DNA from: a virus
Length of the DNA stretch: 31,591 nt
Virus record (IMG/VR): IMGVR_UViG_3300009149_009790
Location: 1-31,591 of that record
Strand: one strand, 5' to 3'
The notes below the pieces were generated by a model that did no database searches, had not been told where the DNA came from, and saw only the letters and a list, made by a program, of their open reading frames with translations. This document shows positions 747 through 28,327 of the stretch, piece after piece (within the stretch, counting starts at the first letter, position 1; each line of letters starts with the position of its first letter). Position numbers and translations under genes: made by a program.

Positions 747-3125
747 TTAAGGCATCAAAATTTCTTTTTTATCAAAATCAAATGAGACTTTTATATTTTT
801 CCTTTTGCTGTTTCTCAAAAGATATAAGGACAAAGGGTCTAAAACCTCTCTTTGTATAAATCTTTTTATTTGTCTCGCTCCGAATTCGTTTTCTTTGTTC
901 TCTTGGTAAACGAAATCAGATACAGACTTATCGAAACTAATTCTCACATCTTTATGTCGCGATAAAATTGACAATTCCGACGTTATAATATTCTTGAAAT
1001 CGTCCTCCTTTAAATTCTCAAAAAATATCACGTCATCGAACCTATTGATCAGCTCCAGCGGCATTTTCTTTTTCAAAGCCGTAAAAGCGGAGTCCTTCCT
1101 CTCTTTCTCCCCTATATTGCCTCCGAAACCTAAAGCCTGAGTTTTCACAAGTAAATCAGAGGCTATATTCCCTGTTATAGCTACAATGCAGTTATTAAAA
1201 CAAGCCTCCCTTCCAATAGAGTCCGTTAGTTTACCGTCCTCTAAAATCTGAAGTAAAACTCTTTGGACATCTTCGTGAGATTTTTCAATCTCATCAAAAA
1301 GGACAACGCAATGAGGATTGTTGTATACTTTTTCTACTAAAGCTCCTCCTCTTTCATGCCCTGAGTATCCAGGTGGCGAACCTACTAGCTTTGAGACACT
1401 ATGGCTTTCTGAGTATTCAGACATGTCTAATCTTATAAAATTGTCATTTCCGGCGAAGGCTTCTTTTGCTATTATTTTAGCTAGGTGAGTTTTCCCTACT
1501 CCAGTCGACCCCAAGCACAAAAAACTTCCAATCGGTTTAGATTCGTCTCTGAGTCCGCTCTTATAACGAATTAAACTTTTACATATTTTGTTTACCGCCA
1601 CATCTTGGCCAAACACTCGTTTTTTGATTCTAGAAGCGAGGTTTATGTATTTTTCAGAACCGTCCCTAGAGAATTTGTCTTTTGGTATATCTAGTTTTTG
1701 AGACAGCACCTCTATAATGTCTTCTTCTTTCAACGAGACTTTGTTTTTTTTAGTCTTCTTTATCCAGTTTTCATACGAATCTCTGTATTGAAGTAGACGT
1801 TCCGATTGAATGTCTTTATCGGCCTCTTCATCTAATAGTATTTTTATCAGATCGCTTTCCTCCTCGATTAGTTTTTTTGGCTTTTTGACTTTTTTGATCT
1901 TGCAGTGGCTACAAGCCAAATCTAACAAATCAAAAGCCTTATCAGGAAACCGAAAGCTTTTCATATATGTCGACGAAAGGCCCACTATCGTTTGTAAGTT
2001 TTTTTCTCCAATCTTTACTGTGTGGTAATCTTCGAAAGAGGCCATTTTACTTTTAAGCATTCCTAAAACATCGCTTTCAGAAGGTTCTTTTACTTTTACT
2101 ATGTCAAACCTTCTGTCTAAAGCTTTATCTTTTGAGATCTTCCCCCTGTATTCAGAATAAGTAGTAGAACCTATGATAGTGATATCCCCGTTAGACAAGT
2201 AAGGTTTTAAGATGTTGGCGGCATCCAAGCCTCCTTCTGAGTCTCCTGCCCCAATAATGGTATGTATCTCGTCAAGAAAAAGAATAACAGAGGGGTCTTT
2301 CGCTTCTCTGATTATAGCTTCTAGTTTCTCTTCGAAATCCCCTCTGTGTTTGCTGCCTGAAACCATAGAGGTCAAGCTCAAAGAAAAGATGACTTTGTTA
2401 GCTAAATAGTGGCTGCACTTATTGTTAGCGATCCTATGCGCCAAGCACTCGACTATAGAGGTCTTTCCTGTTCCTGACTCCCCCGTGATAAGCACGTTGT
2501 TTTTGTTTTTCCTGTTTAAAATAAACTCCATTTTAGCCAGCTCGCTATCTCTGAACAAAAAATCGAACTCATCACCCTCGCATTTGTCGTTTAAGTTTGT
2601 TCCGTATTTTTGCAAGTTAGCAGTCCTTCCAGAAGGAATAGGTTTCGCCATGTCTCCCCCTCTCTCCCCTTGTTCTATAAAAGTTTCCCCTTTGAGATAT
2701 TTAGCTAAATCTTCTTCAAATTTCTTATAATCAAAATCCAACCGATCTAAAACCATAGGCTCTAAATGATCAGAGAGACTAATGACGCCCACGAACATAT
2801 GGTCAACAGAAATCCACTCGTCACCTTCGCCGCTTTCTTCTGCAAATTTAGCAGCATGAGCGAAAACTTCTTCAACCATGGGTCCTACCTCAGGAATCGC
2901 GTCGGTTGCCCCTCTGTCTGAAAAATAACTTTCCGTCATCCAATCGGAAAACTTTTTAACATCCATACCCGCTTCATGCAAAAGAATAATAGTTTTAGCT
3001 TCTTCGCAAGAGCATAACGCGGTTAACATATGCTCCAGCTGCAATACGTCGTGTCCGCAAGACATCGCTATATCGATAGCGCTTTGCTTTACCTCTTCTG
3101 CCATTGGCGTCAGTTTATATGTCAT
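747..3125 (-). CDS. clpA: ClpA/ClpC-type AAA+ protein unfoldase
   Basis: This 792-aa HSP100 protein should thread substrates into a barrel peptidase using ATP. Residues 1-150 form a Clp N-domain. The first AAA module has Walker A GESGTGKT (215-222), Walker B ILFLDE (281-286) and a pore loop around HRGDFEEK (260-267). The second has GSTGVGKT (539-546), VVLFDE (607-612), pore motif GSPPGYSG (582-589) and sensor-2 GAR (749-751). Residues 665-667 are LGF, placed where ClpA and ClpC carry the IGL/LGF/VGF loop that docks ClpP. ClpB disaggregases lack this loop, and the short middle region here lacks a long ClpB coiled coil. There is no clpP in the window, so it may recruit host ClpP. Its ATG overlaps the polymerase stop (ATGA), which suggests co-translation. 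Confidence 0.93.
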   Translation of the reverse strand: MTYKLTPMAEEVKQSAIDIAMSCGHDVLQLEHMLTALCSCEEAKTIILLHEAGMDVKKFSDWMTESYFSDRGATDAIPEVGPMVEEVFAHAAKFAEESGEGDEWISVDHMFVGVISLSDHLEPMVLDRLDFDYKKFEEDLAKYLKGETFIEQGERGGDMAKPIPSGRTANLQKYGTNLNDKCEGDEFDFLFRDSELAKMEFILNRKNKNNVLITGESGTGKTSIVECLAHRIANNKCSHYLANKVIFSLSLTSMVSGSKHRGDFEEKLEAIIREAKDPSVILFLDEIHTIIGAGDSEGGLDAANILKPYLSNGDITIIGSTTYSEYRGKISKDKALDRRFDIVKVKEPSESDVLGMLKSKMASFEDYHTVKIGEKNLQTIVGLSSTYMKSFRFPDKAFDLLDLACSHCKIKKVKKPKKLIEEESDLIKILLDEEADKDIQSERLLQYRDSYENWIKKTKKNKVSLKEEDIIEVLSQKLDIPKDKFSRDGSEKYINLASRIKKRVFGQDVAVNKICKSLIRYKSGLRDESKPIGSFLCLGSTGVGKTHLAKIIAKEAFAGNDNFIRLDMSEYSESHSVSKLVGSPPGYSGHERGGALVEKVYNNPHCVVLFDEIEKSHEDVQRVLLQILEDGKLTDSIGREACFNNCIVAITGNIASDLLVKTQALGFGGNIGEKERKDSAFTALKKKMPLELINRFDDVIFFENLKEDDFKNIITSELSILSRHKDVRISFDKSVSDFVYQENKENEFGARQIKRFIQREVLDPLSLYLLRNSKRKNIKVSFDFDKKEILMP

Positions 3126-6061
3126 TTTAAATCAGAAAGTTTCATAAATATTTTATCGTCCAAAATCTTTAGGTCGTTTATCGTAATAGCGTCGGTCCTT
3201 CCCCTTTTCGCTCTCACGGATACGATGTTTTCCTTTTCTAAACTTATACCATCGTATTCTAATCTCGTCAACATGTCATTCCATATAAAACAAGTAATAT
3301 CCCCTTTTTCGTCGCTCAAAGAAAATCTGCAATATTTTTCATTTTTAACTTTCGTTCTTCCGTTAGAAACGCTCGTGATGATTCCTATGACGTAAAAATC
3401 TGCGTTCTGAGGTCTCTCGCTTATCTCTTCTATCCCGATTCTCATTTGGGAGTTTTCGTAAATGTCTTTCAATCTTGCGGAATAACTATAACCTAGTAAT
3501 TTTCTTTCAAAAAACCAATTCGCAAAATCTACGTTCTTATTGTTTTTGACGTAAATCTCCCTGTATTTTAAACATTTTTCCTTGATAGTATTTATCCTCG
3601 ACTCTTTGATAAGGGGTTTTCCGTCATCTGCTATATTAGGCCCTTCTTTCACTTCCTCTTTCCATATTTTAAATAAGTCGTAATCGTATTGAGGACCCAG
3701 AATCAGGAAGTTCCTTTTTTCTCGGCTTGTTAAAGTGTTGAATACTTGGGCTTCATACACCATATAAGCTCTATCATTGTGTGCGCTGCTCAAAGCCCCT
3801 GCTTGTATAAGACCACTTAGCACCCCAATATTTATCTTGGCTTGTTTTGCCGCGACAAAAACATCAAATTTATTTGTCGCCTCTGAATCTCTGAATTCAA
3901 TGATAGCCTCCAAGCTTCTCTCGCTTACTCCTTTGATAGAGTTTAACCCATAGCGAATACCGTTTCCTTCTATGCTAAAATCCATTTTACTTTTAGCTAA
4001 GTCTGGCCTCAAAAACGGTATCTCAAAATAATTAAGCTCTTTAGATATCTTATTTACGATCTCAAACGGGTCTTGCTCGTGTTTAGAGTTTCGCAGCAAC
4101 GCAGCAAAAAATTCGATAGTATGATTAAACTTCATGTATAAAGTCCACATAGTCAACACGCTGTACGAAATAGAATGTGAGTTAGAAACAACCAGATCCT
4201 CTGCATAAAAATTGTGATCTTTATGGTTTACTTCTAAATCTAATGTTTTTTGCTCTCCTATCGACTTATAATATTTAACTTTTGTAGTTTCGTTACACAC
4301 GATAGAGTGGCCGTTAGAAATAATCTCTTTAAGGGGCCTCATTTTTTTGTCGGAACAAAGGAATTTATGGTTCATAGAGCATTTTATTACGGAACCGTTT
4401 TCCATCTCCACCTCAAATAATTCCACTTCATTTTCGTGGACACCTAAAACTTCCACGAAATGGTCTTTATCATTATCGACATCATGACTTTTAACGAAAT
4501 CGCCTTGAGAAAGTTGAAACAAACACATAGGACCAATGCTCGTCTCTACTACTGTATCAGGACTTAAACATCGATTGAACGAATAATTTGCACTATCCTC
4601 TGCGATTTTCCACAAGATATCTCCTATCTCGGGATCGAGCTTGTTTTCTTTTATTTTGTCTGAGATCTTATCTTTCCACAAAGGCATTTGGTCTACCTTT
4701 TTTTTGCCCACTATCCTTCTCAACAACTCAGCCTCATCTAACGTAAATCCAACGGCGACAGCCATTTTCATCATTTGCTCCTGGTATAAACAATTACCTC
4801 CTGTATAAGATAATATGCCATCAAAAAACGAATGCTGCCCTTGGAATTCTCCTGTTTTCACATATTTGGCATAAGGGCTTTTAAATTGCAAGGCACCTGG
4901 TCTCGCTATAGCTACCGCAGCGCTAACGTCATCGAGGTTTCTGGGTTTGATTTCTTGGCACACTTGCAGGTTGGTGTCAGCTTCAATCTGAAATAGTCCT
5001 TGAGGATTTTCTAAATTTTGGAAATGGACGTATAAGCTTGGATCACGAACATCTATTTCGTCTAGTTTAACTCCTGTTTGGTCGCAAACATCGTGTAACA
5101 CAGTCAAGGTTTTCAGTCCTAAGATATCGAATTTAACCATAATCTCTGCCACCCACTTCATATCATAACAAGAGACTAATTCGCCTTCTTTCGTTTTTTG
5201 GAGAGGACAAATATCAGTAAGTTTTTGTCTTGAGATAGCGATGCCTGAAGCATGAACCCCCGCATTTTTTATCAAACCTTCTATTTTTTGTGCTATCGTT
5301 TTTATTTTTGGGTTCTCCTCTGCCCATTGAGCGAAATGTTCGTTTTCTTCAATCGCTTGCTCAAAATTGCAAGTCTTCCCAAAATGAGAAGGAATAAGAC
5401 TGCTCACCTCGTTCATTTCTTGCTCCGAGTATTCCCCTATAATCTTTCCTTCTTCTTTGACGCAAATCTTGCCTCCAAGGGTCATCAAATTAAGAATGCG
5501 GCATGACCTTTCAGGATGCCTGTCTTTAATGTAATCGATAACTTCTTGCCTGCGGTCAAACGCTATATCATTATCAACATCGGCTAACAAGCTGCCATCA
5601 AGAAAAGTTACTCCATTTTTCTCTATTTTTTTAGCTCTGCTTTTCGATACGAATCGTTCAAAAAATAACCCGTATTCAATAGGGTCAACTTTTGTAACCC
5701 CAAGAAGATAAAGGACTAACGATCCGGCAGCGCTTCCACGCCCAGCTCCCACTGGTATATCGTTAACCTTGCACCACTTTAAAATATCCCAGTTCAGAAG
5801 GATGTAGTCTGTAAAAGATAACTCATCTAGAATATCTATCTCATAACGACATCTATCTATGTATTCTTTCTTGTTGTCTTTTTTATCTAAACCTTTTTCT
5901 ATGAAGCTTTGGGTGCAAAGGGCCTTTATGAACTCAAGATTTGTAGAGGTGTCGGGTATACCTACTTTTTCATAACACTCTTTCTCTATCTTAATTTCCG
6001 GCAAGAGCACTCCTGCTGGAACACAGTCGTCATATTTTTTAAATTGATCGTAAAAATTCAT
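3122..6061 (-). CDS. dnaE: DNA polymerase III alpha subunit core, with mini-intein
   Basis: This is the catalytic core of a bacterial-type replicative polymerase (979 aa before splicing, 849 after). It has the nucleotide-binding motif GAGRGSAAGS (105-114), palm aspartates in ADVDND (D161, D163, D165) and the third aspartate in FDILGL (D312). Further on come the helix-hairpin-helix region and a C-terminal OB fold. All catalytic acids are present, so it should be active. Unlike normal DnaE (about 1,160 aa) it begins just after the PHP domain, which is encoded separately at 8064-8807. A 130-aa intein (residues 498-627) interrupts the conserved FNR-SHS segment. The start overlaps the homing-endonuclease stop (ATGA). 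I see no obvious clamp-binding motif. Confidence 0.95.
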   Translation of the reverse strand: MNFYDQFKKYDDCVPAGVLLPEIKIEKECYEKVGIPDTSTNLEFIKALCTQSFIEKGLDKKDNKKEYIDRCRYEIDILDELSFTDYILLNWDILKWCKVNDIPVGAGRGSAAGSLVLYLLGVTKVDPIEYGLFFERFVSKSRAKKIEKNGVTFLDGSLLADVDNDIAFDRRQEVIDYIKDRHPERSCRILNLMTLGGKICVKEEGKIIGEYSEQEMNEVSSLIPSHFGKTCNFEQAIEENEHFAQWAEENPKIKTIAQKIEGLIKNAGVHASGIAISRQKLTDICPLQKTKEGELVSCYDMKWVAEIMVKFDILGLKTLTVLHDVCDQTGVKLDEIDVRDPSLYVHFQNLENPQGLFQIEADTNLQVCQEIKPRNLDDVSAAVAIARPGALQFKSPYAKYVKTGEFQGQHSFFDGILSYTGGNCLYQEQMMKMAVAVGFTLDEAELLRRIVGKKKVDQMPLWKDKISDKIKENKLDPEIGDILWKIAEDSANYSFNRCLSPDTVVETSIGPMCLFQLSQGDFVKSHDVDNDKDHFVEVLGVHENEVELFEVEMENGSVIKCSMNHKFLCSDKKMRPLKEIISNGHSIVCNETTKVKYYKSIGEQKTLDLEVNHKDHNFYAEDLVVSNSHSISYSVLTMWTLYMKFNHTIEFFAALLRNSKHEQDPFEIVNKISKELNYFEIPFLRPDLAKSKMDFSIEGNGIRYGLNSIKGVSERSLEAIIEFRDSEATNKFDVFVAAKQAKINIGVLSGLIQAGALSSAHNDRAYMVYEAQVFNTLTSREKRNFLILGPQYDYDLFKIWKEEVKEGPNIADDGKPLIKESRINTIKEKCLKYREIYVKNNKNVDFANWFFERKLLGYSYSARLKDIYENSQMRIGIEEISERPQNADFYVIGIITSVSNGRTKVKNEKYCRFSLSDEKGDITCFIWNDMLTRLEYDGISLEKENIVSVRAKRGRTDAITINDLKILDDKIFMKLSDLK
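4181..4570 (-). mobile_element. Mini-intein (no endonuclease) inside DnaE
   Basis: Residues 498-627 of the polymerase do not align with DnaE and carry splicing motifs. The first residue is Cys (block A, CLSPDTVVET). Block B is GSVIKCSMNHKF, with the conserved His at 565 and Ser in place of the usual Thr. Block F reads LDLEVNHKDHNFYAEDLVV, and the element ends Ser-Asn before the +1 extein Ser. The penultimate Ser replaces the common His, as in the cyanobacterial DnaE inteins. At 130 aa there is no room for a LAGLIDADG or HNH domain. The host site is just before the conserved SHS, four residues downstream of the classical cyanobacterial DnaE split-intein site. Confidence 0.92.
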
Positions 6062-7044
6062 ATTTCAATTATTTCTTCCATCCTTTTTATGATATCCTCA
6101 TCGTATGCTATCATAAAATATTTAAAACCATTTTCTTTTGCCCAGTTTTTCTTTATCAAATCTCTTTTCTGAAGCTCTTCCAATCCTTTTTTTGTTTTGC
6201 TAAAATGTTTTACAAGTTTAAAGTGTTGTTTTCCGTGATGTTCAAGCAATACTCCGAAATCCTCAAGATAAAAATCAAATCGTAATTTATAATTTGTTTC
6301 GGGATTTTTACAAGTATCAAAAGTTTTTTCTTTTTTGTATCTTATTTTGTTGCGATCTAGCCAGTTCATTATAATTTTTTCCCTTGTAGAACTATAGCAA
6401 TCAGGGCAGCCATTCGTATTATACTTGCTTATGTGGTTCAAAGGGATCTGGGAAAAAACAGTTAAACATTCGTTGCAAATGATATCAATTTTAACCCTGT
6501 TATTTTTATAATTGATTAAAGAATAGTTAAAATTATCCCCGTGTATGCTTTTTGCTTTGTTTATGAAACGCTTATTACCAAGCCTATTATCTAAGCTTTT
6601 TTTTCTTGCCGCGCATTTAGGGCAGCCCGTTTTGTATTTTCGAGATTTTCCTGCATGATTCTGAGGGGTTTGCTCAAATATGTTTTTGCAGATATTGCAA
6701 AATATTTTAATTTTCGTCTTGTTATTTTTATAATCCACCAAAGAATAGTCATATTTATTACCATGGATTTTTTGAGCCGAATCAACAAACTCAAAAAAAG
6801 TTTTCCTTTGCTTTTTTGCGACCTCTTCTCTTTTGCAAAATTTACACCCAGACCTTCTCTTTTTGCTTATATGATCATGAGGATAAACAAAAACTTCCTT
6901 TCCGCATTTTTTGTGGATTATCTTTATTCGAGTCACGGAGTCTGTGTAATCGGTATTACTATAGTCAAACTCATCCCCGTGAATTTCCTCGGCTATCTTA
7001 AAAAACTCCCTTGAGGTTCTTTTCTTTATATCTCTATTTGCCAT
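6058..7044 (-). CDS. Free-standing EDxHD (Vsr-like) homing endonuclease
   Basis: This 328-aa protein has three tandem zinc-ribbon-type DNA-binding repeats (about residues 10-72, 82-145 and 159-217). Each carries the pattern IHGxxxxYS, then paired cysteines (for example CNIC and CPKC). A Vsr-like nuclease domain follows (about 220-318), with FDFYL (D257), LLEHHGKQHF (E268, H274) and RDLIKKNWAKENGF. This architecture is that of phage homing endonucleases of the EDxHD family, represented by I-Bth0305I. It overlaps the polymerase start by ATGA and the exonuclease stop by 19 nt, so it looks like a late insertion between polymerase-related genes. It may promote spread of the neighbouring endonuclease-less intein; this is inference. 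Confidence 0.88.
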   Translation of the reverse strand: MANRDIKKRTSREFFKIAEEIHGDEFDYSNTDYTDSVTRIKIIHKKCGKEVFVYPHDHISKKRRSGCKFCKREEVAKKQRKTFFEFVDSAQKIHGNKYDYSLVDYKNNKTKIKIFCNICKNIFEQTPQNHAGKSRKYKTGCPKCAARKKSLDNRLGNKRFINKAKSIHGDNFNYSLINYKNNRVKIDIICNECLTVFSQIPLNHISKYNTNGCPDCYSSTREKIIMNWLDRNKIRYKKEKTFDTCKNPETNYKLRFDFYLEDFGVLLEHHGKQHFKLVKHFSKTKKGLEELQKRDLIKKNWAKENGFKYFMIAYDEDIIKRMEEIIEI

Positions 7045-7679
7045 ATCAACCTAGAAAACAATTCAAAGTTTTTAAAGGTATCGTATTTTGAATTGTGTAA
7101 CATTTTCTCGTCAAATTCAATATCATACTCCTTGAGCAATGCCTTTAAGTTCGTCTTCACTCCTCTTTTCCGAAAAGATGCCAACCGAAACATCCATTGT
7201 ATAGTGGACTCGTCTTTTTGTCGAGGGATATCGCACTTGATGGCCTTCGCAAGACAATTGGTATCTATCAGGTTGTCAAGATAAGAATAATCCGTCTTTT
7301 TGCCGCAAATTCTGCGATGTGTATTGTGAATAAAAACATCAAATCTTAATATGTTATGTCCTACCACCAAATACTCAGGATCGTATAAATACTTTTCAAA
7401 AGAATCTAAAACGAAAGCTTTGTCTTTTTTGAGCCTATTATACTTATCCCAAGAAAACCTCGTCACCTTAGCGGCTTCATCAGACATTTTCAAATCAGGC
7501 ACATCTATGTAATGATCCTGCTCTTCTATGATGTTTGGGCCCTCCCCTACCACGAAGGAAAGCTGGAAAGGTCTTGAGTAATAGAGGTTTAGACCCTCCG
7601 TTTCATAATCGAAGCAACAGTATTTTTGTTTCTTATTGTATCTTAATAAATTGTCTAACATATTATTTTTTAGATTCAT
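7026..7679 (-). CDS. DnaQ-like DEDDh 3'-5' exonuclease
   Basis: This 217-aa single-domain exonuclease probably proofreads for the polymerase. Exo I is FDYETEG (D24, E26), Exo II is GHNILRFDV (D114) and Exo III is HNSKYD (H195, D200), so all four acids and the histidine of the DEDDh class are present. It resembles the epsilon-subunit fold but lacks a long tail. Two starts are possible: ATG at 7679 or ATG at 7661. I keep the longer form, since neither has a convincing ribosome site. Its place between the PHP gene and the polymerase core recalls the PHP-exonuclease-polymerase layout of PolC, though here each part is a separate gene. Confidence 0.9.
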   Translation of the reverse strand: MNLKNNMLDNLLRYNKKQKYCCFDYETEGLNLYYSRPFQLSFVVGEGPNIIEEQDHYIDVPDLKMSDEAAKVTRFSWDKYNRLKKDKAFVLDSFEKYLYDPEYLVVGHNILRFDVFIHNTHRRICGKKTDYSYLDNLIDTNCLAKAIKCDIPRQKDESTIQWMFRLASFRKRGVKTNLKALLKEYDIEFDEKMLHNSKYDTFKNFELFSRLIWQIEI

Positions 7680-8076
7680 CTGACAAAATTAACTCTTCTC
7701 CTGTTGATATCTTTCGAGCAGCTTTGATTATCAAAGTATTTTGAGGAGTGACTCTCAGATCGAGGTTTCCTTTTTTTGCTTTACTGTAAACCATTGAGTA
7801 TCCTGAGCCACAGGTAGGTCTTGTGACATGAGCCTTTAACACTCCTCCGTTTTTATCTGCAAAAACTTTGCTATCTTCCCTCAGGTGAGGGATACCTATA
7901 AAATGAGAAATAAAAGCCTCGTCCATCTCTTCCCATTTGTCGCTTTTTGGAACGATTAAGACGCATTCTTCAAGTTTTTCTCCCTTTTTAATGTCGGTAT
8001 TAGCGAAAACTCCCTTAATTGCGCCTTCGTCGTCTACTCTTAAATTGATTTTTTGTGATAATGTTAAATCTCGCAT
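7663..8076 (-). CDS. SET-domain-like protein
   Basis: This 137-aa protein resembles the SET fold of protein-lysine methyltransferases. The N-terminal strand pattern (about GVFANTDIKKGEKLEECVLIV) and the C-terminal AARKISTGEELILSD match the ends of that fold. The usual NHS motif, which binds the cofactor, is replaced around YSKAKKGN, so catalysis is doubtful. I choose the ATG at 8076 because a GGCGGA sequence precedes it. A TTG at 8088 would add four residues. It overlaps the end of the PHP gene. Small SET proteins occur in phages with no settled role. Modification of replication proteins is a guess. Confidence 0.7.
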   Translation of the reverse strand: MRDLTLSQKINLRVDDEGAIKGVFANTDIKKGEKLEECVLIVPKSDKWEEMDEAFISHFIGIPHLREDSKVFADKNGGVLKAHVTRPTCGSGYSMVYSKAKKGNLDLRVTPQNTLIIKAARKISTGEELILSDESKK

Positions 8077-8807
8077 TTTTCCGCCCAACTTTCTATGCAG
8101 AATTCACTGCTGCCGCATTCTTCTAGTTCAGGGCGGCTAATATTTGTCGCTTTTCCTCCTTTACGTAAGCTAATAATCCTAAACGTCTGGTAAGCTTTCA
8201 GGTCTTCTCTTTTTTTGTAATAAATAGACTTTGCGAATACCACTGAAGCGTTACTGGCCTTAGCTACCGACTCTACCTTTTCCCTTAAAAAAACATCTAT
8301 CGGCAAAAGGTTGCTTTCGATAAAGAAGCTAACTTTTCCCAACCCATTAAAATTAGGTACGAAAGAATCGAAACTAAAATTATTGCGGTGGATATAAGAA
8401 TCATAAAAAGGAATAAACAACAATAAATCATCGCCATTCCAATGCTTGCTAAGATCCTCCAGAGTGATCCTTCCTTCGTGTCCGCAGTTCGCTTCTGAGT
8501 AAATTTTATACAGCTTTTTGATTCCTTCATCGTTTTTTGCGAAAATAACTATTTTATGAGTTTCTTTTTGTTCGTAATTGTCTGACACCGGAAGCCTTAA
8601 GCCGAAAACAAAGTCGAGGTTATTTTTTTCTACTTCTGATTTCGTCTTCAGAAACCCATGCATCTGATCTTCGACAAAAACTACTTTTTCAATTTTGTGT
8701 TTTTTCGCAAGTTCGATAACGCTATCTGCGCCTCCTTCTTTCGTCTCGCTTTCTACGTTCAGAATAGACTTGCCAATACTATAATGCGTTTTAAATAAAG
8801 GAATCAT
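8064..8807 (-). CDS. Separate PHP-domain protein of DNA polymerase III alpha
   Basis: This 247-aa protein covers the N-terminal PHP domain of DnaE as a stand-alone gene. It starts FKTHYSIGKSIL, equivalent to the DnaE HxHSxYS start. It continues through a DFVFGLRL segment equivalent to KPIIGCE, and ends ESWAEKCEI, where DnaE reads like NTVEIAKRCNV. The polymerase core resumes at the very next part of the DnaE alignment, so little or nothing is missing at the split. Most metal ligands are gone (HxH to KTH, TDH to VEDQ, GCE to GLR), which argues for a structural role rather than phosphoesterase activity. It probably binds the core or the neighbouring exonuclease. Its ATG is 4 nt after the preceding 54-aa gene. 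Confidence 0.85.
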   Translation of the reverse strand: MIPLFKTHYSIGKSILNVESETKEGGADSVIELAKKHKIEKVVFVEDQMHGFLKTKSEVEKNNLDFVFGLRLPVSDNYEQKETHKIVIFAKNDEGIKKLYKIYSEANCGHEGRITLEDLSKHWNGDDLLLFIPFYDSYIHRNNFSFDSFVPNFNGLGKVSFFIESNLLPIDVFLREKVESVAKASNASVVFAKSIYYKKREDLKAYQTFRIISLRKGGKATNISRPELEECGSSEFCIESWAEKCEI

Positions 8808-8984: not shown

Positions 8985-10025
8985 TTAATAACTTGTTCTA
9001 TTCCATCTCGGGCATCCTTCGTAATGCTCCTTCTTAATACTATAGCCCTCTTTTTTCATTTGGACAAGCTCATAATAGTCATCAATGAAAACTTTTTTGA
9101 CCAAGTCGCCTTTTTCGTCGTAAAGAGAGTAGTAATCAAAAGGAAACTTATACGCGCAATGCCACATAGGATCACCGTTCTTTTTCGGCTGCCCTGGGTA
9201 TTTAGCAAAACCGCAAACGATTATTCCTGCGAACCCGTCTTCTTTGGTTATTTTTTTATCAGCGGCATAAGCGGACTTGGCGCTATTGGCGTTGAAGTTT
9301 TCTAAGTATTTTCGCCATTTGACCAATGATCCTTCGAAGAGGTCTAGTTCTTTTTTTGAGATCCTTTTCGTCCTTAGTATTCCTTTTGAATCTTTTATGC
9401 CTGACTTCATGTCAAACTTAAGAAACAAAAACTCACTCTCCCTTTTTGTGTAATCGGGAAACAAATGACGTACGGCCAAAGAATAAATGTAATCTTGGTA
9501 ATTTTCACTTACCTCTTTTCCTTCGAAAACTTTCTTGCTCGTCTTGAAGTCTCTGATTAGTATGAACTTTTTAGTTTTGTAGAGAAACAGTTTGTCTATG
9601 AAGCCTTTGATTTTGTATTTCTCGCCCTTGGACTCCAGTTCTAGGTCAAACGCCAACTCCGAATAAGCTTCTGTCGGCTTTTGCAGATCGTTTCCGAAAA
9701 AATCATACTCAAGACCAGCCACTATCATGTCATTTATTAGCCGCAAATTTTCTTCGTCGTCTACCCCATGGCCGATGGCTTTTTTCATGATGAGCCTTTT
9801 TATAGACGGCACGGAAAATACGTCCTTGTTTTTCGTTATTTTCGTGAAATACTTCTTCTTGTCTTTTTTGCCTAAACACTCAAAAACACAATGGCAAATA
9901 TCTCCCCTCGAAGCTCCGTCGTTCTTTTTGTCTGGAAGCTTTAGCTTGTATTTTGCGTGATACAAAAAACTACAAGTTTTCGCTGTCTTTATTCTGCTGG
10001 CGGATAATTTAATTTCTTTGCTCAT
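8985..10025 (-). CDS. RecB/Cas4-like PD-(D/E)XK nuclease
   Basis: This 346-aa nuclease should process DNA ends or help recombination. It carries the RecB-family motifs: H45 in GDICHCVFE, D144 in KGFIDKLFL, D159-x-K161 in RDFKTSK, and the QDYIYS motif (Q177, Y181). One N-terminal cysteine (C18) and three C-terminal ones (C271, C290, C338) could hold an Fe-S cluster as in Cas4 and AddB. The spacing is wider than usual, so this is tentative. There is no helicase domain. It sits between the primase, joined by a TAATG overlap, and the polymerase genes, which supports a replication-recombination role rather than CRISPR adaptation. No repeats or other cas genes are present. Confidence 0.88.
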   Translation of the reverse strand: MSKEIKLSASRIKTAKTCSFLYHAKYKLKLPDKKNDGASRGDICHCVFECLGKKDKKKYFTKITKNKDVFSVPSIKRLIMKKAIGHGVDDEENLRLINDMIVAGLEYDFFGNDLQKPTEAYSELAFDLELESKGEKYKIKGFIDKLFLYKTKKFILIRDFKTSKKVFEGKEVSENYQDYIYSLAVRHLFPDYTKRESEFLFLKFDMKSGIKDSKGILRTKRISKKELDLFEGSLVKWRKYLENFNANSAKSAYAADKKITKEDGFAGIIVCGFAKYPGQPKKNGDPMWHCAYKFPFDYYSLYDEKGDLVKKVFIDDYYELVQMKKEGYSIKKEHYEGCPRWNRTSY

Positions 10026-11107
10026 TATAAAATGTCTTCGTTAAAATGTGATGAGAATTTTGCGATTTTGCTTTTTATTCCCTCTTTTTTTCGAAATACC
10101 GATGTATTCCGAGGATCTTTCAAAAAATTAAAAATATATCTTCTTTGCTTTTCTAGGTCCACCTTCTTTCCTATCCAAGATCCTATGGTGGAGTTTTTAT
10201 GCATGTCAGACAGGTCGTTTTGTTGCGGTAATTTGATTTGGATTTTTTCCATATCAAAGAAGTCCATCAGGGAAACGAAATGCTTGATAGCGCTTATTAG
10301 CCCTGCGTTTTTGGAGGAAGAGGAATCGTTATTCATCGCAATGATTATTTTATCGGGAGACAGAGATAGTAACGCCATCTTTTGTGACTGGCTAAGATCG
10401 ATCCCGAATGTCACCATATGGTTGTAAATTTTATTTTCTGTCAAGGCTAAGCTGTCTCCTATCGACTCGACCAATATTACCTCTTTCGAACTTTCGATTT
10501 CTTGCTCGAACACCCCTTTAAAACATAGCGGAAAAATCCAGCCCTTCTTCGTTCCCAAGTGTTTCCATTTCGGAAAAGAATCGTCTCCGTCTTTCCACAG
10601 TAAGCTTCGGCCTGAAAACCCTATTAGCTTTTCTTCAAATTCGTAATCCAAAATAGGAAAAACATACCTATTATTCATTTTCCCTTTCGTGCAAAAACCA
10701 GACCTATACATCTTGAGAGTTTGCTTTGAAATCTTTTTGTCTTCGTAAAATTTGTAATGAGGAAGCAAATCTTTCAGGTCCTCGATATTGTAAGTTTTGT
10801 CCATTTTTATTTCTGGCTTGTTTTCTTTGAAATCGAATATATCTCGTTCGGAAGGAAGGTTGTTTATGTCATATTTGTCTAATTCTTTGTCGCATTGTAT
10901 CCCTAGAGCTTTCGCTACCAAAACTTTGAAAGGAGACGGTTGGGTTCCGTCCACATAATCTCTCCATACTCCTGAATCCTTATAAATTTGGACCGCTGAA
11001 TAGTTATCACCATTTCTCCATATCGCGTTAGTAGACCAAAAGTGGCCTTTGTCGTTTAACTTGAAACCTAGCTCTCTCAAAGTTTCTTTTATTTCAGATG
11101 TAAGCAT
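10025..11107 (-). CDS. Toprim DNA primase (phage DnaG-like)
   Basis: This 360-aa protein should make RNA primers for the helicase encoded just upstream. The central part has the RNA-polymerase-like segment (NNRYVFPILD at about 145-154, GFSGRSL, KWKHLGTKKGW). The Toprim fold follows, with ILVESIGDS (E214, D218), IIIAMNND (D261) and QQNDLSDM (D298). In the second motif the first acid of the usual DxD is Asn, a variant known from phage primases. No N-terminal CHC2 zinc finger is visible, since the cysteines are absent. It joins dnaB by a TAATG overlap, so primase and helicase are probably made together. Confidence 0.87.
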   Translation of the reverse strand: MLTSEIKETLRELGFKLNDKGHFWSTNAIWRNGDNYSAVQIYKDSGVWRDYVDGTQPSPFKVLVAKALGIQCDKELDKYDINNLPSERDIFDFKENKPEIKMDKTYNIEDLKDLLPHYKFYEDKKISKQTLKMYRSGFCTKGKMNNRYVFPILDYEFEEKLIGFSGRSLLWKDGDDSFPKWKHLGTKKGWIFPLCFKGVFEQEIESSKEVILVESIGDSLALTENKIYNHMVTFGIDLSQSQKMALLSLSPDKIIIAMNNDSSSSKNAGLISAIKHFVSLMDFFDMEKIQIKLPQQNDLSDMHKNSTIGSWIGKKVDLEKQRRYIFNFLKDPRNTSVFRKKEGIKSKIAKFSSHFNEDIL

Positions 11108-12618
11108 TATAATAATTGCTTTGGAACTCCTCCGCTGCCTATCGCCTGTTTGACCGTTGGTGATAAATTCAAAAAATCTTTAAGGTCTACTTGGTCGCCT
11201 TTACAGCTAACATCAAAACCCTCCATGTCCAAATGTATCTTATTAGGAACAAACTTTCCTCCTCCCATGTCTACAGGTGAAGTCGCTCTTTTATACCATT
11301 TACCGAGATGCCTCGATTTTAAGTTGATCAATAAGTGAGTTCCGAACTGTTGATTTTCGTCTGCTATCTGGTCTAATGTTTTATCTCTAAGGATAAATAA
11401 GTGGCTACAATATTGGGTCACTCGGTCAGAAAGGCTGACTATCCCTTCGTCATCGTTAATATCTTTGGAATGTTTATTCGTAACGATTCCCGAGCGGTTA
11501 CTCTGGATGCTGGTAAACATCGGTATAACGGGCTCTCCTTGGTATTTTATTTCCTCTTGGATGGCTCTTTTAAACCTGTTTACCATAGAACCTACTACTT
11601 GCCACTCACTTCTTCCTGCTTCTTCCGTTGGTTTGATGTAGTCGAAAGAAAAAATCATTCTTTTTCCTCTCCCTATTTTGGAGTAATAGAATCGCTTTAA
11701 AAGGTTCACCATCTTTTCTGAGTCGTGTCCTCCCACTCCATAATAATAACACTCAAGATCTTTGATCCTTTCCCATATGTCTCTTACCTTTTCTACTGTA
11801 GCTTTTCCCGCCAGCCTCCATTGCCCCGTTTCCAAAAGATGAGAGGACACTCCTGAAAGGCTACAACACTGCCTGATAATGAGTTCGTTTTTACTCATTT
11901 CCCCGTTGTCAAAATGTAAGACAGGGACGTTGTATTTTTGAGAGACTTTCATTGTGTAATTCATAGCCAGGCGCGTTTTTCCTACTCCTGATCTCGCAAC
12001 AATTACAGTTATATTACCTGGTCTCAGCAAGCTTCCGTAAAGGTTATTTACAACATCAAAAGGCCCCATAAGCCCCATCTCGTCTTTCGGATTTTCCCCT
12101 AACGTCTCTATGTGATTCTCCATCTCGGCATAGATGTTAGAAAAGGCTTTTTCGCCGCAACCAAACATGTCTACTTTTTTGTTAAAAGTCTTGTCGGCCA
12201 AATCAATAATGTCGTCATAAGACGCGTCGGAGCTGATTGTTTTCACCTTTTTTGCTGTATCAGCCGCAGCCTTATAGATTTCGCGACGAACAGTGTATTT
12301 TTTCAATTCTCTCGCTACGTCTAAAAACTGCTTTTCAGAAATCTTTTGCAAGGATAAGGAGCGAATATAGTCCCCAATCTCTATATCTTGTGGAAAAGAA
12401 ATGCCGAGCGATTTTATTCTTTCGATAAGAATAACCTCGTCTACTCCTCCTCCGTTTTCGCACAAACCTTTTAGAGCAGAAAAGATTGTCTTCGTTATTT
12501 TGTTTTGATCGCTAGAAAAATCACCTTCTCCTATGATATCCGCTATATCTCCATAACAATTAGGGTATTTTATTAGTCCCGCTAATAATCTTTGCTCTAA
12601 TCCTAAATTGTAAATCAT
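11107..12618 (-). CDS. dnaB: Replicative DNA helicase (DnaB family)
   Basis: This 503-aa hexameric helicase should move 5' to 3' on the lagging strand. Residues 1-110 match the DnaB N-terminal, primase-interacting domain (starting GLEQRLLAGLI). The RecA-like motor has Walker A ARSGVGKT (208-215), the catalytic Glu in DNGEM (E240), Walker B FSFDYIKP (D326) and an SIQSNR motif (about 370-375). Length is close to that of E. coli DnaB (471 aa), with no intein. The start overlaps the previous stop by ATGA, and the stop overlaps the primase start by TAATG. No separate helicase loader is recognised. Confidence 0.95.
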   Translation of the reverse strand: MIYNLGLEQRLLAGLIKYPNCYGDIADIIGEGDFSSDQNKITKTIFSALKGLCENGGGVDEVILIERIKSLGISFPQDIEIGDYIRSLSLQKISEKQFLDVARELKKYTVRREIYKAAADTAKKVKTISSDASYDDIIDLADKTFNKKVDMFGCGEKAFSNIYAEMENHIETLGENPKDEMGLMGPFDVVNNLYGSLLRPGNITVIVARSGVGKTRLAMNYTMKVSQKYNVPVLHFDNGEMSKNELIIRQCCSLSGVSSHLLETGQWRLAGKATVEKVRDIWERIKDLECYYYGVGGHDSEKMVNLLKRFYYSKIGRGKRMIFSFDYIKPTEEAGRSEWQVVGSMVNRFKRAIQEEIKYQGEPVIPMFTSIQSNRSGIVTNKHSKDINDDEGIVSLSDRVTQYCSHLFILRDKTLDQIADENQQFGTHLLINLKSRHLGKWYKRATSPVDMGGGKFVPNKIHLDMEGFDVSCKGDQVDLKDFLNLSPTVKQAIGSGGVPKQLL

Positions 12619-13198: not shown

Positions 13199-13489
13199 CT
13201 ACGCCAAATAACTAAGTTTGCTCGGCCCATGGAAAAACTTGACATATTTTGTATGTTGCCGCCCTTGGACCTCTATCGCTACTTTTAAAGTCTCGTTATA
13301 AATATCCAAACTTAACCTCGTGGAGACAACAGGGAACTCCTCAAAAACGATATGGCTAGACCAATAAGGGTTTACTATGTTTTTGATCCTTGTTTGGAAT
13401 TTACTTCGACTTTTTTTTTCCCAATCTATTCTGTATTTGTGAGCATGTCGAAGTGTTTTTGCGGAGCCTAATATTGTTTTAAATCTCAT
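13199..13489 (-). CDS. Vsr-like nuclease, N-terminal part ending at an in-frame amber codon
   Basis: The open part is 96 aa and contains a Vsr/EDxHD-like core: LSLDIY (D62), VAIEVQGRQH (E73, Q75, H79) and then FFHGPSKLSYLA before TAG. The rest of the fold lies downstream in the same frame, so the product as terminated would lack the RD-containing helix and last strand and is probably inactive. A single C-to-T change from CAG (Gln) would create this TAG. It has no DNA-binding repeats, so it may be a repair or recombination nuclease rather than a homing enzyme. The start overlaps the recA-like stop by ATGA. Alternatives are a recent nonsense mutation, a sequencing error, or true amber readthrough. 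Confidence 0.75.
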   Translation of the reverse strand: MRFKTILGSAKTLRHAHKYRIDWEKKSRSKFQTRIKNIVNPYWSSHIVFEEFPVVSTRLSLDIYNETLKVAIEVQGRQHTKYVKFFHGPSKLSYLA

Positions 13490-17916: not shown

Positions 17917-18984
17917 TTATTGTTTTAGCAGATTAAAATCAGTTTCTACCATTTTTTTAACTAAACCTTTGAAATCTGTTTTCGGCTTCCATCCTAGTTC
18001 ACTTTTAATTTTGCTAGGATCTCCTAGTAAGAGGTTTACTTCGGCGGGTCTGTAAAAAACAGGGTTCACGTTGATTAGCACATTTCCCTCTGAATCTTTG
18101 TATTCCTCTTCCTCTGGGTTATCAAATTTAAACCATTTTCCATCGATACCCGCAACAGAAAACGCCTCTTCAACAAAATCTCGAATTGAATAAGCTTCAC
18201 CAGAAGCCACTACATATTCAGAAATGTCTTTCGCCCCTGCCCAGTTTTTTTTGTGAACATCTTGGTTCAGCATTCTCCAAATTGCATCAACAAAATCTTC
18301 CGCATCGCTCCAGTCTCTCTTGGCGTCAAGGTTACCCAGCGAAATAGGAAGGTGTGTTTTTCCGTTTTCCTTATCTTTCTTTATTCTAGCTACCCCCATG
18401 GAGACTTTTCTCGTTAAAAACTCAGGGCCTCTTCTGCTTCCTTCGTGATTCATTAGCCATCCTTGCACCGCGTATAAGCCATAGCTATCCCTATAAGTCT
18501 TGACAAGGTGCCTAGCGGCAGCTTTCGAAGCTCCGTACGGAGATCGAGGTCGCAAAGGGTGAATCTCGTCTTGGGGAGAATACAAGACATCTCCGAATTC
18601 TTCGCTTGTTCCTGCGTTATAGAATCTAGTTTCTGGGCTAAAATTCCGAATAGCTTCTAGGATATGCAAAACCCCCGTAGCGTTAGTGTTCCAAGTCACC
18701 ACTGGGATATCCCAGCTTGAACCGACAAAACTTTGCGCCGCCAAGTTGATAAAATATGATGGCTTATATTTTTTTATGATGTTTTGGATTGATTCGCTAT
18801 CCGTCAGATCGAAATAAACAGTCTCAAACCTATCTGAATTTATATGTTCGATGTTTTGATGATTAGGCACAGAAAGCCGCCTCAAGGTTCCTATTATATG
18901 GTAATCTGTATTCTTAAGCAGATAATCTACCATATGGCTGCCGTCTTGTCCTGTTACACCTGTAATTATGACTTTTTTATTCAT
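17917..18984 (-). CDS. gmd: GDP-mannose 4,6-dehydratase
   Basis: This 355-aa extended-SDR enzyme converts GDP-D-mannose to GDP-4-keto-6-deoxymannose, the first step to GDP-L-fucose. It has the NAD(P) motif TGVTGQDGS near the start, the GMD signature around NAGTSEEFG, the catalytic SPYGASKAAARHL (YxxxK), and the RGPEFLTRKV and KRDWSDAEDFV segments typical of the family. I choose the ATG at 18984, just after the fcl stop. An upstream TTG at 19002 would add six residues that do not match the family. It is the last gene of the glycan cluster. Its neighbour, GDP-fucose synthase, completes the pathway. GDP-mannose must come from the host or from genes outside the window. Confidence 0.95.
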   Translation of the reverse strand: MNKKVIITGVTGQDGSHMVDYLLKNTDYHIIGTLRRLSVPNHQNIEHINSDRFETVYFDLTDSESIQNIIKKYKPSYFINLAAQSFVGSSWDIPVVTWNTNATGVLHILEAIRNFSPETRFYNAGTSEEFGDVLYSPQDEIHPLRPRSPYGASKAAARHLVKTYRDSYGLYAVQGWLMNHEGSRRGPEFLTRKVSMGVARIKKDKENGKTHLPISLGNLDAKRDWSDAEDFVDAIWRMLNQDVHKKNWAGAKDISEYVVASGEAYSIRDFVEEAFSVAGIDGKWFKFDNPEEEEYKDSEGNVLINVNPVFYRPAEVNLLLGDPSKIKSELGWKPKTDFKGLVKKMVETDFNLLKQ

Positions 18985-18989
18985 GATTA

Positions 18990-19901
18990 TCAACGATACC
19001 AATTATAAGTCCTATTCAGCGTTTCTTCTAAAGAAATTTCAGCCTCGAATCCAAATTTTTCCTTGGCCTTAGACACGTCGAGGCATCGTCGAGCCTGACC
19101 ATTAGGTTTAGACTCGTCGAACACTATCCTGCCGTTAAAACCCACTGTATTTTTGACCTGAAGCACAAGGTCTTTGATTGTTATTTCTTTTCCTGTGCCG
19201 ATATTGACAGGCTCAGGGGAATTATAGTTTTCCATCGCCATCACTATTGCTCTCGCACAATCTCCAGCATATAAAAATTCACGAGAAGCGGACCCGTCTC
19301 CCCAAATCACTACTTCTTTTTTATCTTCCAGTTTTGCTTCGTGCATTTTTCTGATCAAGGCCGGAATAACATGAGAGTTTTCTAGATCAAAATGATCATA
19401 TTCACCCGCTAAGTTGACAGGAATAAGGTGTATAAAATTGTCGCCATACTGAGAATTGTAGGCTTTACACCCTTCCATCAATACTCTTTTCGCGATCCCA
19501 TAAGGAGCGTTTGTCTTTTCTGGATAGCCGTTCCAAATGTTTTCTTCTCGAAATGGGACGGGGGTAAGAGAAGGGTAGCTACACACGGAGCCTAACGTCA
19601 CCAGTTTTTCTACTTTGGTTTCATGGCATGCTTTTAAAACATTCACGCCCATCATAAGGTTTTTTTCGAAAAAGTCTGCCGGACTATTTTTGTTAGCTCC
19701 TATTCCTCCGCAAACCGCTGCCAAATGGATAACGATATCTGGTTTGTAAAACTGAACCTTAAACAAGGTATCATGATAGTTTGTCAGGTCTGCGTTTTTG
19801 CTGCTAAGCGATATGGCTCTGTATCTATTGTCGTCGTCTAAAAGCCTATTGAGGTGTCGCCCTAAAAACCCTGTTCCTCCTGTTATTAAAATTTTCTTCA
19901 T
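18990..19901 (-). CDS. fcl: GDP-L-fucose synthase
   Basis: This 303-aa SDR enzyme should do the epimerisation and NADPH reduction that turn GDP-4-keto-6-deoxymannose into GDP-L-fucose. It shows ITGGTGFLGRHL at the N-terminus, the family-specific CGGIGANKNSPADF, the GSVCSYPS segment with the catalytic Ser/Cys region, PYGIAKR (YxxxK) and NLAGEYDHFDLENSHVIPAL. Length matches the family (about 310-320 aa). The start overlaps the aminotransferase stop by ATGA. With gmd next door it makes the donor for the family-10 fucosyltransferase at 29748. Confidence 0.95.
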   Translation of the reverse strand: MKKILITGGTGFLGRHLNRLLDDDNRYRAISLSSKNADLTNYHDTLFKVQFYKPDIVIHLAAVCGGIGANKNSPADFFEKNLMMGVNVLKACHETKVEKLVTLGSVCSYPSLTPVPFREENIWNGYPEKTNAPYGIAKRVLMEGCKAYNSQYGDNFIHLIPVNLAGEYDHFDLENSHVIPALIRKMHEAKLEDKKEVVIWGDGSASREFLYAGDCARAIVMAMENYNSPEPVNIGTGKEITIKDLVLQVKNTVGFNGRIVFDESKPNGQARRCLDVSKAKEKFGFEAEISLEETLNRTYNWYR

Positions 19902-20941
19902 ATTTGCTCCATCTCTTTGAAAAAATCTTGAATTAAAGTTTCTGGCCCTATAGTCAACCTCGCCCAGTTCTTTCTGCTATCAAAAGGAATTTTTATTTTG
20001 TTTTTAAAACTTATTTTGTGCTTTTTTAAAATTTTGTCTAATGAGGCGTTATCGTCTTTTCTATTTATATGCACCCAGTTCGTGGCCGAAGGAATGATGT
20101 CAAACTTGCCTTCTAACTTTTGGACAAAAACTTTCATTTTCTCTAGCGTCTGAGAAACATAATAACGATAAGGAGAAGGATTGTCTAATAAAAAATTGAT
20201 ATACTTCAAAGACGCCCCGCTCAAAGGAAAGGAAGGTCGGCTTTTTTCAAAAAGCTGAATATTGCGTTCTTGCGATATAACATATCCAAACCTACACCCT
20301 GCTCCCCCCCAAGCCTTAGAAAAAGTTCTGCTTATGACTAAATTATCATGCTTGGCTATTAAGTCTGAGCAATTGTAATCAATGAAATCGACATAAGCCT
20401 CATCAAGTAAAAAATAAACGCCTTTCTTTTTTAATCTTTCGCATATATAGTCGACCTCTTCTTTGGATTTTAAATCTCCCAAAGGTGAATTTGGGTTGGC
20501 TAATATCGCTATGCTGACATTTTCATCAGCTTTCTTTAGGAAATCATCGATAGAAAAGTTCAGATCTTCATTGAACTCGACTTCAGATTTTGTCATGTTG
20601 AACATGTCGCAGTAAACATGATACATAGGAAACGAAAGTTTGTTTAACAAAGCTTCTCCTTGGCCATATATCCAAAAAAAATCTTTTATTAGTTGATCTG
20701 ATCCGCTTCCTAGGCTTATATTTTGAGGGTTTGCTCCTGCTACTTTGGAGACCTTTTTTTTCATGTCCGAAAAATTTGATTCAGAAGGGTAGCATATAAA
20801 ATCCTCCTGAACCAGCGTGTCTTTAAACGCTTCAAAGAAAGACGTTTTAAAATTTTCTAACCTTTCTCCCATATCGTATCTTTTTTGAGGAGAAATCGCC
20901 TCTCTATGGCAAAACCTCCTTAATGTCCTTTGGTTAAACAT
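19898..20941 (-). CDS. HisC/CobD-like PLP-dependent aminotransferase or decarboxylase
   Basis: This 347-aa fold-type I PLP enzyme resembles histidinol-phosphate aminotransferase. Key segments are GSGSDQLIKDFF, LANPNSPLG (substrate/PLP Asn), LLDEAYVDF (Asp and Tyr) and SRTFSKAWGGAGCRFGY, with the Schiff-base Lys. A true histidine-pathway role is unlikely in this setting. HisC-like enzymes in capsule loci can act on small phosphates: Campylobacter Cj1436 decarboxylates serine phosphate and Cj1437 makes serinol phosphate. Together with the nearby nucleotidyltransferase and APH-like kinase it may make an activated amino-alcohol phosphate; that is inference. The start overlaps the radical SAM gene by TAATG. 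Confidence 0.85.
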   Translation of the reverse strand: MFNQRTLRRFCHREAISPQKRYDMGERLENFKTSFFEAFKDTLVQEDFICYPSESNFSDMKKKVSKVAGANPQNISLGSGSDQLIKDFFWIYGQGEALLNKLSFPMYHVYCDMFNMTKSEVEFNEDLNFSIDDFLKKADENVSIAILANPNSPLGDLKSKEEVDYICERLKKKGVYFLLDEAYVDFIDYNCSDLIAKHDNLVISRTFSKAWGGAGCRFGYVISQERNIQLFEKSRPSFPLSGASLKYINFLLDNPSPYRYYVSQTLEKMKVFVQKLEGKFDIIPSATNWVHINRKDDNASLDKILKKHKISFKNKIKIPFDSRKNWARLTIGPETLIQDFFKEMEQI

Positions 20942-21876
20942 TAGCCTCCCACTCCTAATTCCCCGAGTAAAGGAGACAATTCTTTATAAGAGCAGTTTTT
21001 GCAATGGTCCGATTTTTTGTCTTCCCCGCATTGTTTAGCTATTTCTGCGTATCTGCTTGATTTTCTAATCTCCTGCAAACTATCTTTGAATAAATTTCCA
21101 AAAGGTTTTGCCCCTGTGTTCAAGCAACACATTTTCACATTTCCCTCTACGGTAGTGTAAAGTCCGTTTTTAGGCCAAAAACAATCATTCCAACTCCAAG
21201 GGGATTTACCTTTAATAAGACTTCTAAATGTTTTAAGGTATTCAAGCTGTTCTTCGGTATAACCCCATGTGTTTTCGTTTGATTGCACAGATTTATCTTG
21301 AGACCAGTCTTGAGCGATGTTGAGTCTAAGTTCGCTTAAATTATATTTAGATAAAAATTCTTGAATTTTAGGAATGTCTTTAAGGTTTTCCTTGTTGACC
21401 ACATAATTTATTACTATTTGGCACCCTTTTCTATCTATGTTTTGTAGATCATTTAGGAATTTTATAAGTTTGTCCCATTTGGCAGGGGAACGATCTCTTT
21501 CGTAGCTTGCTTTGTATCCATCTATGGACAAATATAAAACATCGATATATTCTAAGCTGTCCTGAAAACGTCTTTTCATCTTGGATGTGTCGCCTATATC
21601 GTATTGGCAATTCGTAGCCACGATAACTCGGCAAGAAGGAAAAACCTCTTTAAAAACCTTGGTTACGCCGTCGAATTCGGGGTGTAAAAAAGGCTCCCCC
21701 ATTCCCATCAATTTGCACTCTTCAAGAGGGTGGTCTTTTATTTTTCCTAGCATCTCTTCCCACTTATTCAGGGGCATATGCTTTAACGGTCCTATGACTT
21801 CTTTTCTGTTGCAAAAAGAACAAGAAAGGTTGCAGTAATTCGTTGTTTCTAAATATGCGTATGTTATTTTATTCAT
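20941..21876 (-). CDS. Radical SAM/SPASM enzyme
   Basis: This 311-aa protein binds a 4Fe-4S cluster through CNLSCSFC (CxxxCxxC) near the N-terminus. GMGEPFLHPEF is the GGE-like SAM-binding motif. A SPASM-type C-terminus has further cysteines (CFWPKNG, KMCCLNTG, HCKNC). I choose the ATG at 21876 (MNKITYAYLETT), which has AAGGA 8 nt upstream. The longer frame from 21909 adds eleven unrelated residues and overlaps the previous gene by 41 nt. Substrate is unknown. Its neighbours suggest it modifies a small precursor or sugar for the glycan rather than a peptide, since no precursor peptide is seen. Confidence 0.88.
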   Translation of the reverse strand: MNKITYAYLETTNYCNLSCSFCNRKEVIGPLKHMPLNKWEEMLGKIKDHPLEECKLMGMGEPFLHPEFDGVTKVFKEVFPSCRVIVATNCQYDIGDTSKMKRRFQDSLEYIDVLYLSIDGYKASYERDRSPAKWDKLIKFLNDLQNIDRKGCQIVINYVVNKENLKDIPKIQEFLSKYNLSELRLNIAQDWSQDKSVQSNENTWGYTEEQLEYLKTFRSLIKGKSPWSWNDCFWPKNGLYTTVEGNVKMCCLNTGAKPFGNLFKDSLQEIRKSSRYAEIAKQCGEDKKSDHCKNCSYKELSPLLGELGVGG

Positions 21877-26627: not shown

Positions 26628-26637
26628 ACTTCCTATC

Positions 26638-28321: not shown

Positions 28322-28327
28322 ATCTCT

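What the first reader, a model, noticed from the sequence alone, without database searches (positions are those of the whole stretch)
3122..8807. Replicative polymerase split into PHP protein and catalytic core, with exonuclease and SET genes in between
The 247-aa gene at 8064 aligns with the N-terminal PHP region of DnaE and stops where the core gene at 3122-6061 begins to align. Between them lie a DEDDh exonuclease, a SET-like protein and a homing endonuclease. PHP, exonuclease and polymerase in this order echo PolC, where the exonuclease is inserted within PHP. This may be a polymerase assembled from three or four separate chains.
Basis: partly seen in the sequence, partly recalled or inferred. 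Interest (0 to 1): 0.75.

Follow-up and report, generated by a model that had tools for sequence, protein, structure and literature searches.

The report
Phage DNA polymerase in separate pieces
A large group of uncultured phages makes its main DNA-copying enzyme as separate proteins (a lifeless scaffold domain, a proofreading nuclease and the copying core) that are one chain in most relatives, which lets biologists test what that scaffold domain is really for.

Summary
The gene at 8064-8807 encodes a complete DnaE-type PHP domain. The gene at 3122-6061 encodes the DnaE palm, fingers, HhH and OB parts and has no PHP. A DEDDh exonuclease, a SET protein and a homing endonuclease lie between them. 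The split is not a local accident: 123 of 123 loci with all three genes, from a large uncultured phage clade (at least 566 IMG/VR contigs encode the PHP), keep the order PHP, exonuclease, core, and none is fused. The PHP has lost at least 8 of 9 metal ligands but is under strong purifying selection; exonuclease and core keep their active sites. Most likely this is a polymerase of three non-covalent subunits: core, dead PHP scaffold, proofreader. SET and homing endonuclease are passengers. Likeness to PolC is not supported for PHP or core. The split is not unprecedented: isolated actinophages (Grayson, Trina, Chivey, Wollypog) also encode PHP and core separately, by independent fissions, with intact PHP sites. 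In several clade members the core is further broken by a split intein, sometimes around a homing endonuclease. Assembly is inferred; no interface was shown.

The parts
8064..8807 (-). Stand-alone PHP domain of a DnaE-type polymerase, 247 aa, metal site lost
   Evidence: Pfam PHP 1.2e-6; profile hit to Thermus DnaE 4e-11; Foldseek top 19 all C-family alpha subunits; at most 1 of 9 metal ligands in 126 homologues
7663..8088 (-). SET-domain protein (probable start ATG at 8076); passenger, not part of the polymerase
   Evidence: Pfam SET 1.8e-6; also between PHP and exonuclease in L063-L073 and a few others, absent in most relatives
7026..7679 (-). DEDDh 3'-5' exonuclease, the presumed proofreading subunit
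   Evidence: profile hit to PolC exonuclease 2p1j 4.6e-9; D24, E26, D114, H195 in 125 of 125 and D200 in 124 of 125 homologues
6058..7044 (-). Free-standing endonuclease (homing-endonuclease-like), inserted between exonuclease and core in this genome only
   Evidence: phrog_559 2e-59, phrog_9084 homing endonuclease 1.7e-21; no full-length homologue in 134 related loci
3122..6061 (-). DnaE-type polymerase core (palm, fingers, HhH, OB), no PHP; contains the intein
   Evidence: Pfam domains; Asp triad in 110 of 110 homologues
4181..4570 (-). Mini-intein, 130 aa, between YSFNR and SHS
   Evidence: Cys1 and C-terminal SN followed by Ser; phmmer to DnaE inteins 4e-8; absent from most relatives, split in others
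4571..6061 (-). N-extein part of the core
3122..4180 (-). C-extein part of the core, stop codon included

Best explanation
The genes encode a C-family (DnaE-type) phage replicative polymerase made of separate chains. The core polymerises DNA after removing its intein by protein splicing. The PHP protein binds the core in trans where the PHP domain sits in a fused DnaE; it has no nuclease activity and acts as scaffold and probably as the landing site for the proofreader. The DEDDh exonuclease supplies 3'-5' proofreading. SET and homing endonuclease genes are passengers in the operon. Shown here: domain identities, complementarity of PHP and core, clade-wide split and gene order, loss of the PHP metal site, conservation of the other two active sites, purifying selection. 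Inferred: binding in trans, docking of the exonuclease on PHP, splicing activity.
For: PHP and core profiles of the clade align to consecutive, non-overlapping stretches of single fused phage DnaEs (e.g. residues 33-231 and 280-1052 of a 1170-aa protein in L055). Order PHP < exonuclease < core on one strand in 123 of 123 loci, no ORF with two of the three domains. Contigs of 37-170 kb hold one core and one PHP (one contig, core near its end, lacks the PHP) and no second DnaE. PHP keeps 0 or 1 of 9 metal ligands in 126 homologues, exonuclease DEDDh kept in at least 124 of 125, core triad 110 of 110. PHP median dN/dS 0.076 (0.051 for pairs with dS < 1). PHP and core distances correlate, Spearman 0.81. 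[quoted passage not shown] PMC3666897 shows that E. coli PHP is structurally needed and reports that epsilon binds it and that PHP inactivation goes with a separate DEDDh proofreader.
Against: No interface was demonstrated: an AF2 model of PHP and exonuclease joined by a same-frame read-through (L019) folded both domains but gave pTM 0.51, so no confident arrangement. The exonuclease lacks an evident C-terminal tail like the PHP-binding tail of E. coli epsilon. The PHP lacks the segment that links PHP to palm in fused DnaEs. Loci were found with clade proteins as queries, so the count of 0 fused is biased towards split members.
Confidence: 0.8

Rival explanations
1. Recent, local disruption: a once fused DnaE gene was broken in this genome by insertion of the SET and homing endonuclease genes, and the pieces are decaying.
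For: Mobile-type genes do lie between PHP and core here, and in Arthrobacter phage Wollypog an HNH endonuclease sits between PHP and core.
Against: The split is present in the whole clade, mostly with only the exonuclease in between; PHP dN/dS 0.05-0.08; all reading frames open.
Confidence: 0.03
2. A PolC-type polymerase taken apart: PHP, exonuclease and core are the PolC domains as separate chains.
For: The exonuclease is closest to the PolC exonuclease and lies between PHP and core.
Against: Core and PHP are DnaE by NCBIfam and PDB profiles, the OB is C-terminal, and the PHP is contiguous while in PolC the exonuclease is inserted inside it.
Confidence: 0.05
3. The PHP protein has left the polymerase and does something else (for example binds a host protein); the core works without PHP.
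For: No interface shown; the link segment is lost; the active site is gone.
Against: Strict co-inheritance and neighbourhood with exonuclease and core; fold match to DnaE PHP rather than to other PHP enzymes; PHP integrity is needed in E. coli Pol III (PMC3666897).
Confidence: 0.1
4. The chains are joined after all, by protein trans-splicing or ribosomal frameshift across gene overlaps.
For: Split inteins do join core halves in some relatives; PHP/exonuclease and exonuclease/core genes often overlap.
Against: No intein sequence seen at the PHP C-terminus or core N-terminus; whole unrelated genes intervene in the window and other relatives.
Confidence: 0.02

Closest known systems
Split DnaE of isolated actinophages: Rhodococcus Grayson gp102/gp103, Trina gp101/gp102; Microbacterium Chivey gp57/gp58; Arthrobacter Wollypog gp56/gp59
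   Same: PHP and core encoded as two ORFs; in Wollypog an HNH endonuclease lies between them
   Different: PHP keeps all nine metal ligands; the split point is later in the protein; no exonuclease between the two parts; other branches of the core tree, so independent fissions; Trina's relative NiceHouse is fused
E. coli Pol III core (DnaE alpha plus DnaQ epsilon)
   Same: dead PHP plus a separate DEDDh exonuclease
   Different: there PHP is covalently part of alpha; epsilon has a PHP-binding C-terminal tail
PolC
   Same: PHP, exonuclease and polymerase together; exonuclease of the PolC/DnaQ type
   Different: PHP and core are DnaE-type; PHP is not interrupted; OB at the other end
Pbunavirus PB1 polymerase module
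   Same: exonuclease gene next to a DnaE gene, PHP ligands mostly lost
   Different: PHP fused to core, exonuclease gene upstream of both
Naturally split and fractured-gene inteins (Npu DnaE; gp41-1; Aes123 PolB1 of Aeromonas phages, PMC11923092)
   Same: N part about 94-103 aa, C part 38-41 aa; in L133, L150 and L151 a homing endonuclease gene lies between the halves
   Different: in a phage C-family polymerase, at FN(K/R)/SHS, which from my own knowledge is a few residues from the cyanobacterial DnaE site

Membership tests
C-family DnaE polymerase | palm, fingers and HhH of DnaE type with catalytic Asp triad | tested here: met
C-family DnaE polymerase | PHP domain in the same chain | tested here: not met
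   0 fused ORFs in 135 loci; PHP is a separate gene
PolC | exonuclease inserted in PHP, PolC-type core | tested here: not met
   contiguous PHP; core 451 bits DnaE vs 36 bits PolC
Active PHP nuclease | nine metal ligands HHDHEH(C/H)DH | tested here: not met
   0 or 1 of 9 in 126 clade PHPs; all nine in most fused phage DnaEs
DEDDh exonuclease (DnaQ/PolC type) | D, E, D, H, D motif and fold | tested here: met
DnaQ/epsilon subunit of Pol III | binds PHP of alpha | tested here: inconclusive
   AF2 of a same-frame read-through of PHP and exonuclease, pTM 0.51
Multi-chain polymerase complex | PHP, exonuclease and core form one complex | not testable with these tools
   no multimer prediction or biochemistry available; synteny and co-inheritance only
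Mini-intein (window) | Cys1, block B His, C-terminal Asn, nucleophilic +1 residue, insertion in a conserved motif | tested here: met
   C...SMNH...SN|S at the conserved YSFN(K/R)SHS motif; splicing itself not tested
Fractured-gene split intein (relatives) | intein halves on two ORFs, with or without a homing endonuclease between | tested here: met
   L002, L144 without; L133 (GIY-YIG), L150 and L151 (DUF559/NUMOD3) with

The most novel reading that the evidence does not exclude
A widespread phage clade uses a replicase whose PHP domain has become a dedicated, non-catalytic adaptor subunit that loads a trans-acting proofreader onto the core, and in some members the core itself is assembled from two chains by protein trans-splicing, so that four translation products make one polymerase.
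Probability: 0.5. Interest if true: 0.72.

Novelty: new variant of a known kind. Interest (0 to 1): 0.6.

Why it matters
[quoted passage not shown] Phages that encode it as a separate, conserved, inactive protein allow the domain to be left out, added back or swapped without cutting a protein. The contrast with actinophages, where the split-off PHP keeps its active site, suggests that fission and inactivation are separate steps and that inactivation goes with a DEDDh exonuclease. The natural split inteins at a site in a phage DnaE are also possible protein-ligation tools.

Tried and rejected
Single-sequence searches with the PHP found nothing; the alignment was needed. A first alignment for the PHP-exonuclease read-through was misaligned and was replaced by a smaller set; the resulting model was inconclusive. 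I first took the split to be unique because the first isolates checked were fused; a wider check found split actinophages, and the novelty was lowered. The homing endonuclease of the window is not related by phmmer to two of those inside the split inteins, L150 and L151, so I do not claim that it mobilises the window's intein. No Rfam match, so no intron evidence around it. No beta clamp (PF02768) in ten clade contigs of 95-170 kb. L065's broken core is probably a sequencing error (L064 is intact). Kazlauskas and Venclovas 2011 on viral replicases is not held, so prior mention there was not checked; the paper searches found no description of a trans-encoded PHP.

Full report
What is there. The window is a whole IMG/VR contig of 31,591 bases. 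On its minus strand runs a replication block: DnaB-like helicase 11107-12618, primase 10025-11107, PD-(D/E)XK nuclease 8985-10025, PHP 8064-8807, SET 7663-8088, exonuclease 7026-7679, endonuclease 6058-7044, polymerase core 3122-6061, ClpA/B-like ATPase 747-3125. Neighbouring genes from PHP to core overlap by a few bases, which suggests a translationally coupled operon (inference).

PHP and core are two parts of one DnaE. The PHP protein matches phrog_405 (a fused phage DnaE family) at columns 51-266 and the core matches it at 326-1054. NCBIfam DnaE models give the same picture. Profiles of clade PHPs and cores hit consecutive stretches of the same ORF in fused phage polymerases, for example 33-231 and 280-1052 of a 1170-aa protein. 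A PHP profile hits Thermus DnaE at 4e-11, and the AF2 model of the PHP (pLDDT 82, pTM 0.82) has only C-family alpha subunits among its best 19 PDB matches. The short segment that joins PHP to palm in fused proteins is missing.

It is a property of a clade. The core query fetched 49 loci, 47 of them close relatives. Of 135 loci examined, 123 hold all three genes, all in the order PHP, exonuclease, core on one strand; no ORF holds two of the domains. In 77 of 123 loci PHP and exonuclease lie within 30 bases, in 70 exonuclease and core do. Genes between them vary: SET in the window's nearest relatives, a cupin-like gene, a small ORF and others. PHP and core are each single-copy in the longer contigs; one contig, with its core near an end, has no PHP. 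The clade is one branch of the core tree with support 100. Because the queries came from the clade, the absence of fused members is partly by construction; the tree and the isolates give the independent view.

Active sites. Against the nine PHP metal ligands, most fused phage DnaEs have the full set; 126 clade PHPs have none or one, with charged replacements (R at E. coli position 69 in 122, K at 83 in 125). The exonuclease keeps D, E, D and H in 125 of 125 and the last D in 124. The core keeps its three aspartates in 110 of 110. PHP genes evolve under purifying selection, median dN/dS 0.076 over 132 pairs and 0.051 over 37 pairs with dS below 1; exonuclease and core 0.03-0.04. A dead, conserved PHP together with a DEDDh exonuclease is the E. 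coli pattern (PMC3666897).

How it most likely works. Core polymerises, exonuclease proofreads, PHP holds them together and stabilises the core, all as separate chains. Binding is inferred. My one structural test, a same-frame read-through of PHP and exonuclease in L019, gave two well-folded domains and no confident arrangement.

The intein. The core carries a 130-aa mini-intein at 4181-4570, between YSFNR and SHS. Most relatives have no insertion there. L002 and L144 have the same intein cut in two, with in-frame stops or a short gap between the halves. L133 (and L127) has a GIY-YIG gene on the other strand between the halves; L150 and L151 have a DUF559/NUMOD3 endonuclease gene on the same strand. 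These resemble the fractured genes known from other phage proteins; the scatter over the tree fits a mobile element (inference). In those phages four translation products would make the polymerase.

What is already known. Reviews call PHP universal in bacterial C-family polymerases (PMC12926913). Among isolated phages I found the PHP/core split in Rhodococcus Grayson and Trina, Microbacterium Chivey and Arthrobacter Wollypog, annotated as two DnaE ORFs; PHROGs holds a family, phrog_11165, whose profile begins almost at the core. Their PHPs keep all nine ligands, and their cores lie on two other branches, next to fused relatives, so PHP/core fission happened at least three times (a quick tree with long branches). 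The window's clade therefore is a new variant: clade-wide, PHP dead, exonuclease always alongside, recurrent split intein.

Verdict. Observation confirmed. Interpretation partly supported: separate chains yes, PolC kinship no, SET and endonuclease not parts. No isolate of the clade was found; PHP searches of 50,697 phage records gave no close match.

Noticed in passing
window 4181-4570: 130-aa mini-intein in the polymerase core, with naturally split versions at the same site in relatives L002, L127/L133, L144, L150, L151.
   Followed up: yes
window 7663-8088: SET-domain gene between PHP and exonuclease, weakly closest to the PBCV-1 viral H3K27 methyltransferase (E 0.005); kept at this place in the nearest relatives.
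   Followed up: partly
L002:9768-10004, L014:9754-10002 and others: Conserved small ORF of 66-86 aa (starting MPSLDFVYDL or similar) between exonuclease and core in many relatives; the L002 copy has no Pfam match; not seen in the window at this place.
   Followed up: no
window 13199-13489; about 135-aa genes such as L084:1762-2169: Gene near UvsX matching phrog_559 (window), and genes in relatives matching the C-terminal part of the window's endonuclease; possibly a conserved nuclease.
   Followed up: no
L034:1751-3070, L046:5295-6614: PHP gene with a C-terminal extension to 439 aa of unknown function; a 2.7 kb stretch lies between exonuclease and core.
   Followed up: no
window 17917-31589: Surface-sugar gene cluster: epimerases, glycosyltransferases, a GT10 fucosyltransferase, a sulfotransferase, FkbM methyltransferases, a radical SAM protein.
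   Followed up: no
window 747-3125: ClpA/B-like ATPase overlapping the end of the polymerase gene; a similar gene follows the core in L150 and L151.
   Followed up: no
L154:3029-6337: Stenotrophomonas phage BUCTxx99 DnaE carries a uracil-DNA-glycosylase-like domain at its C-terminus.
   Followed up: no
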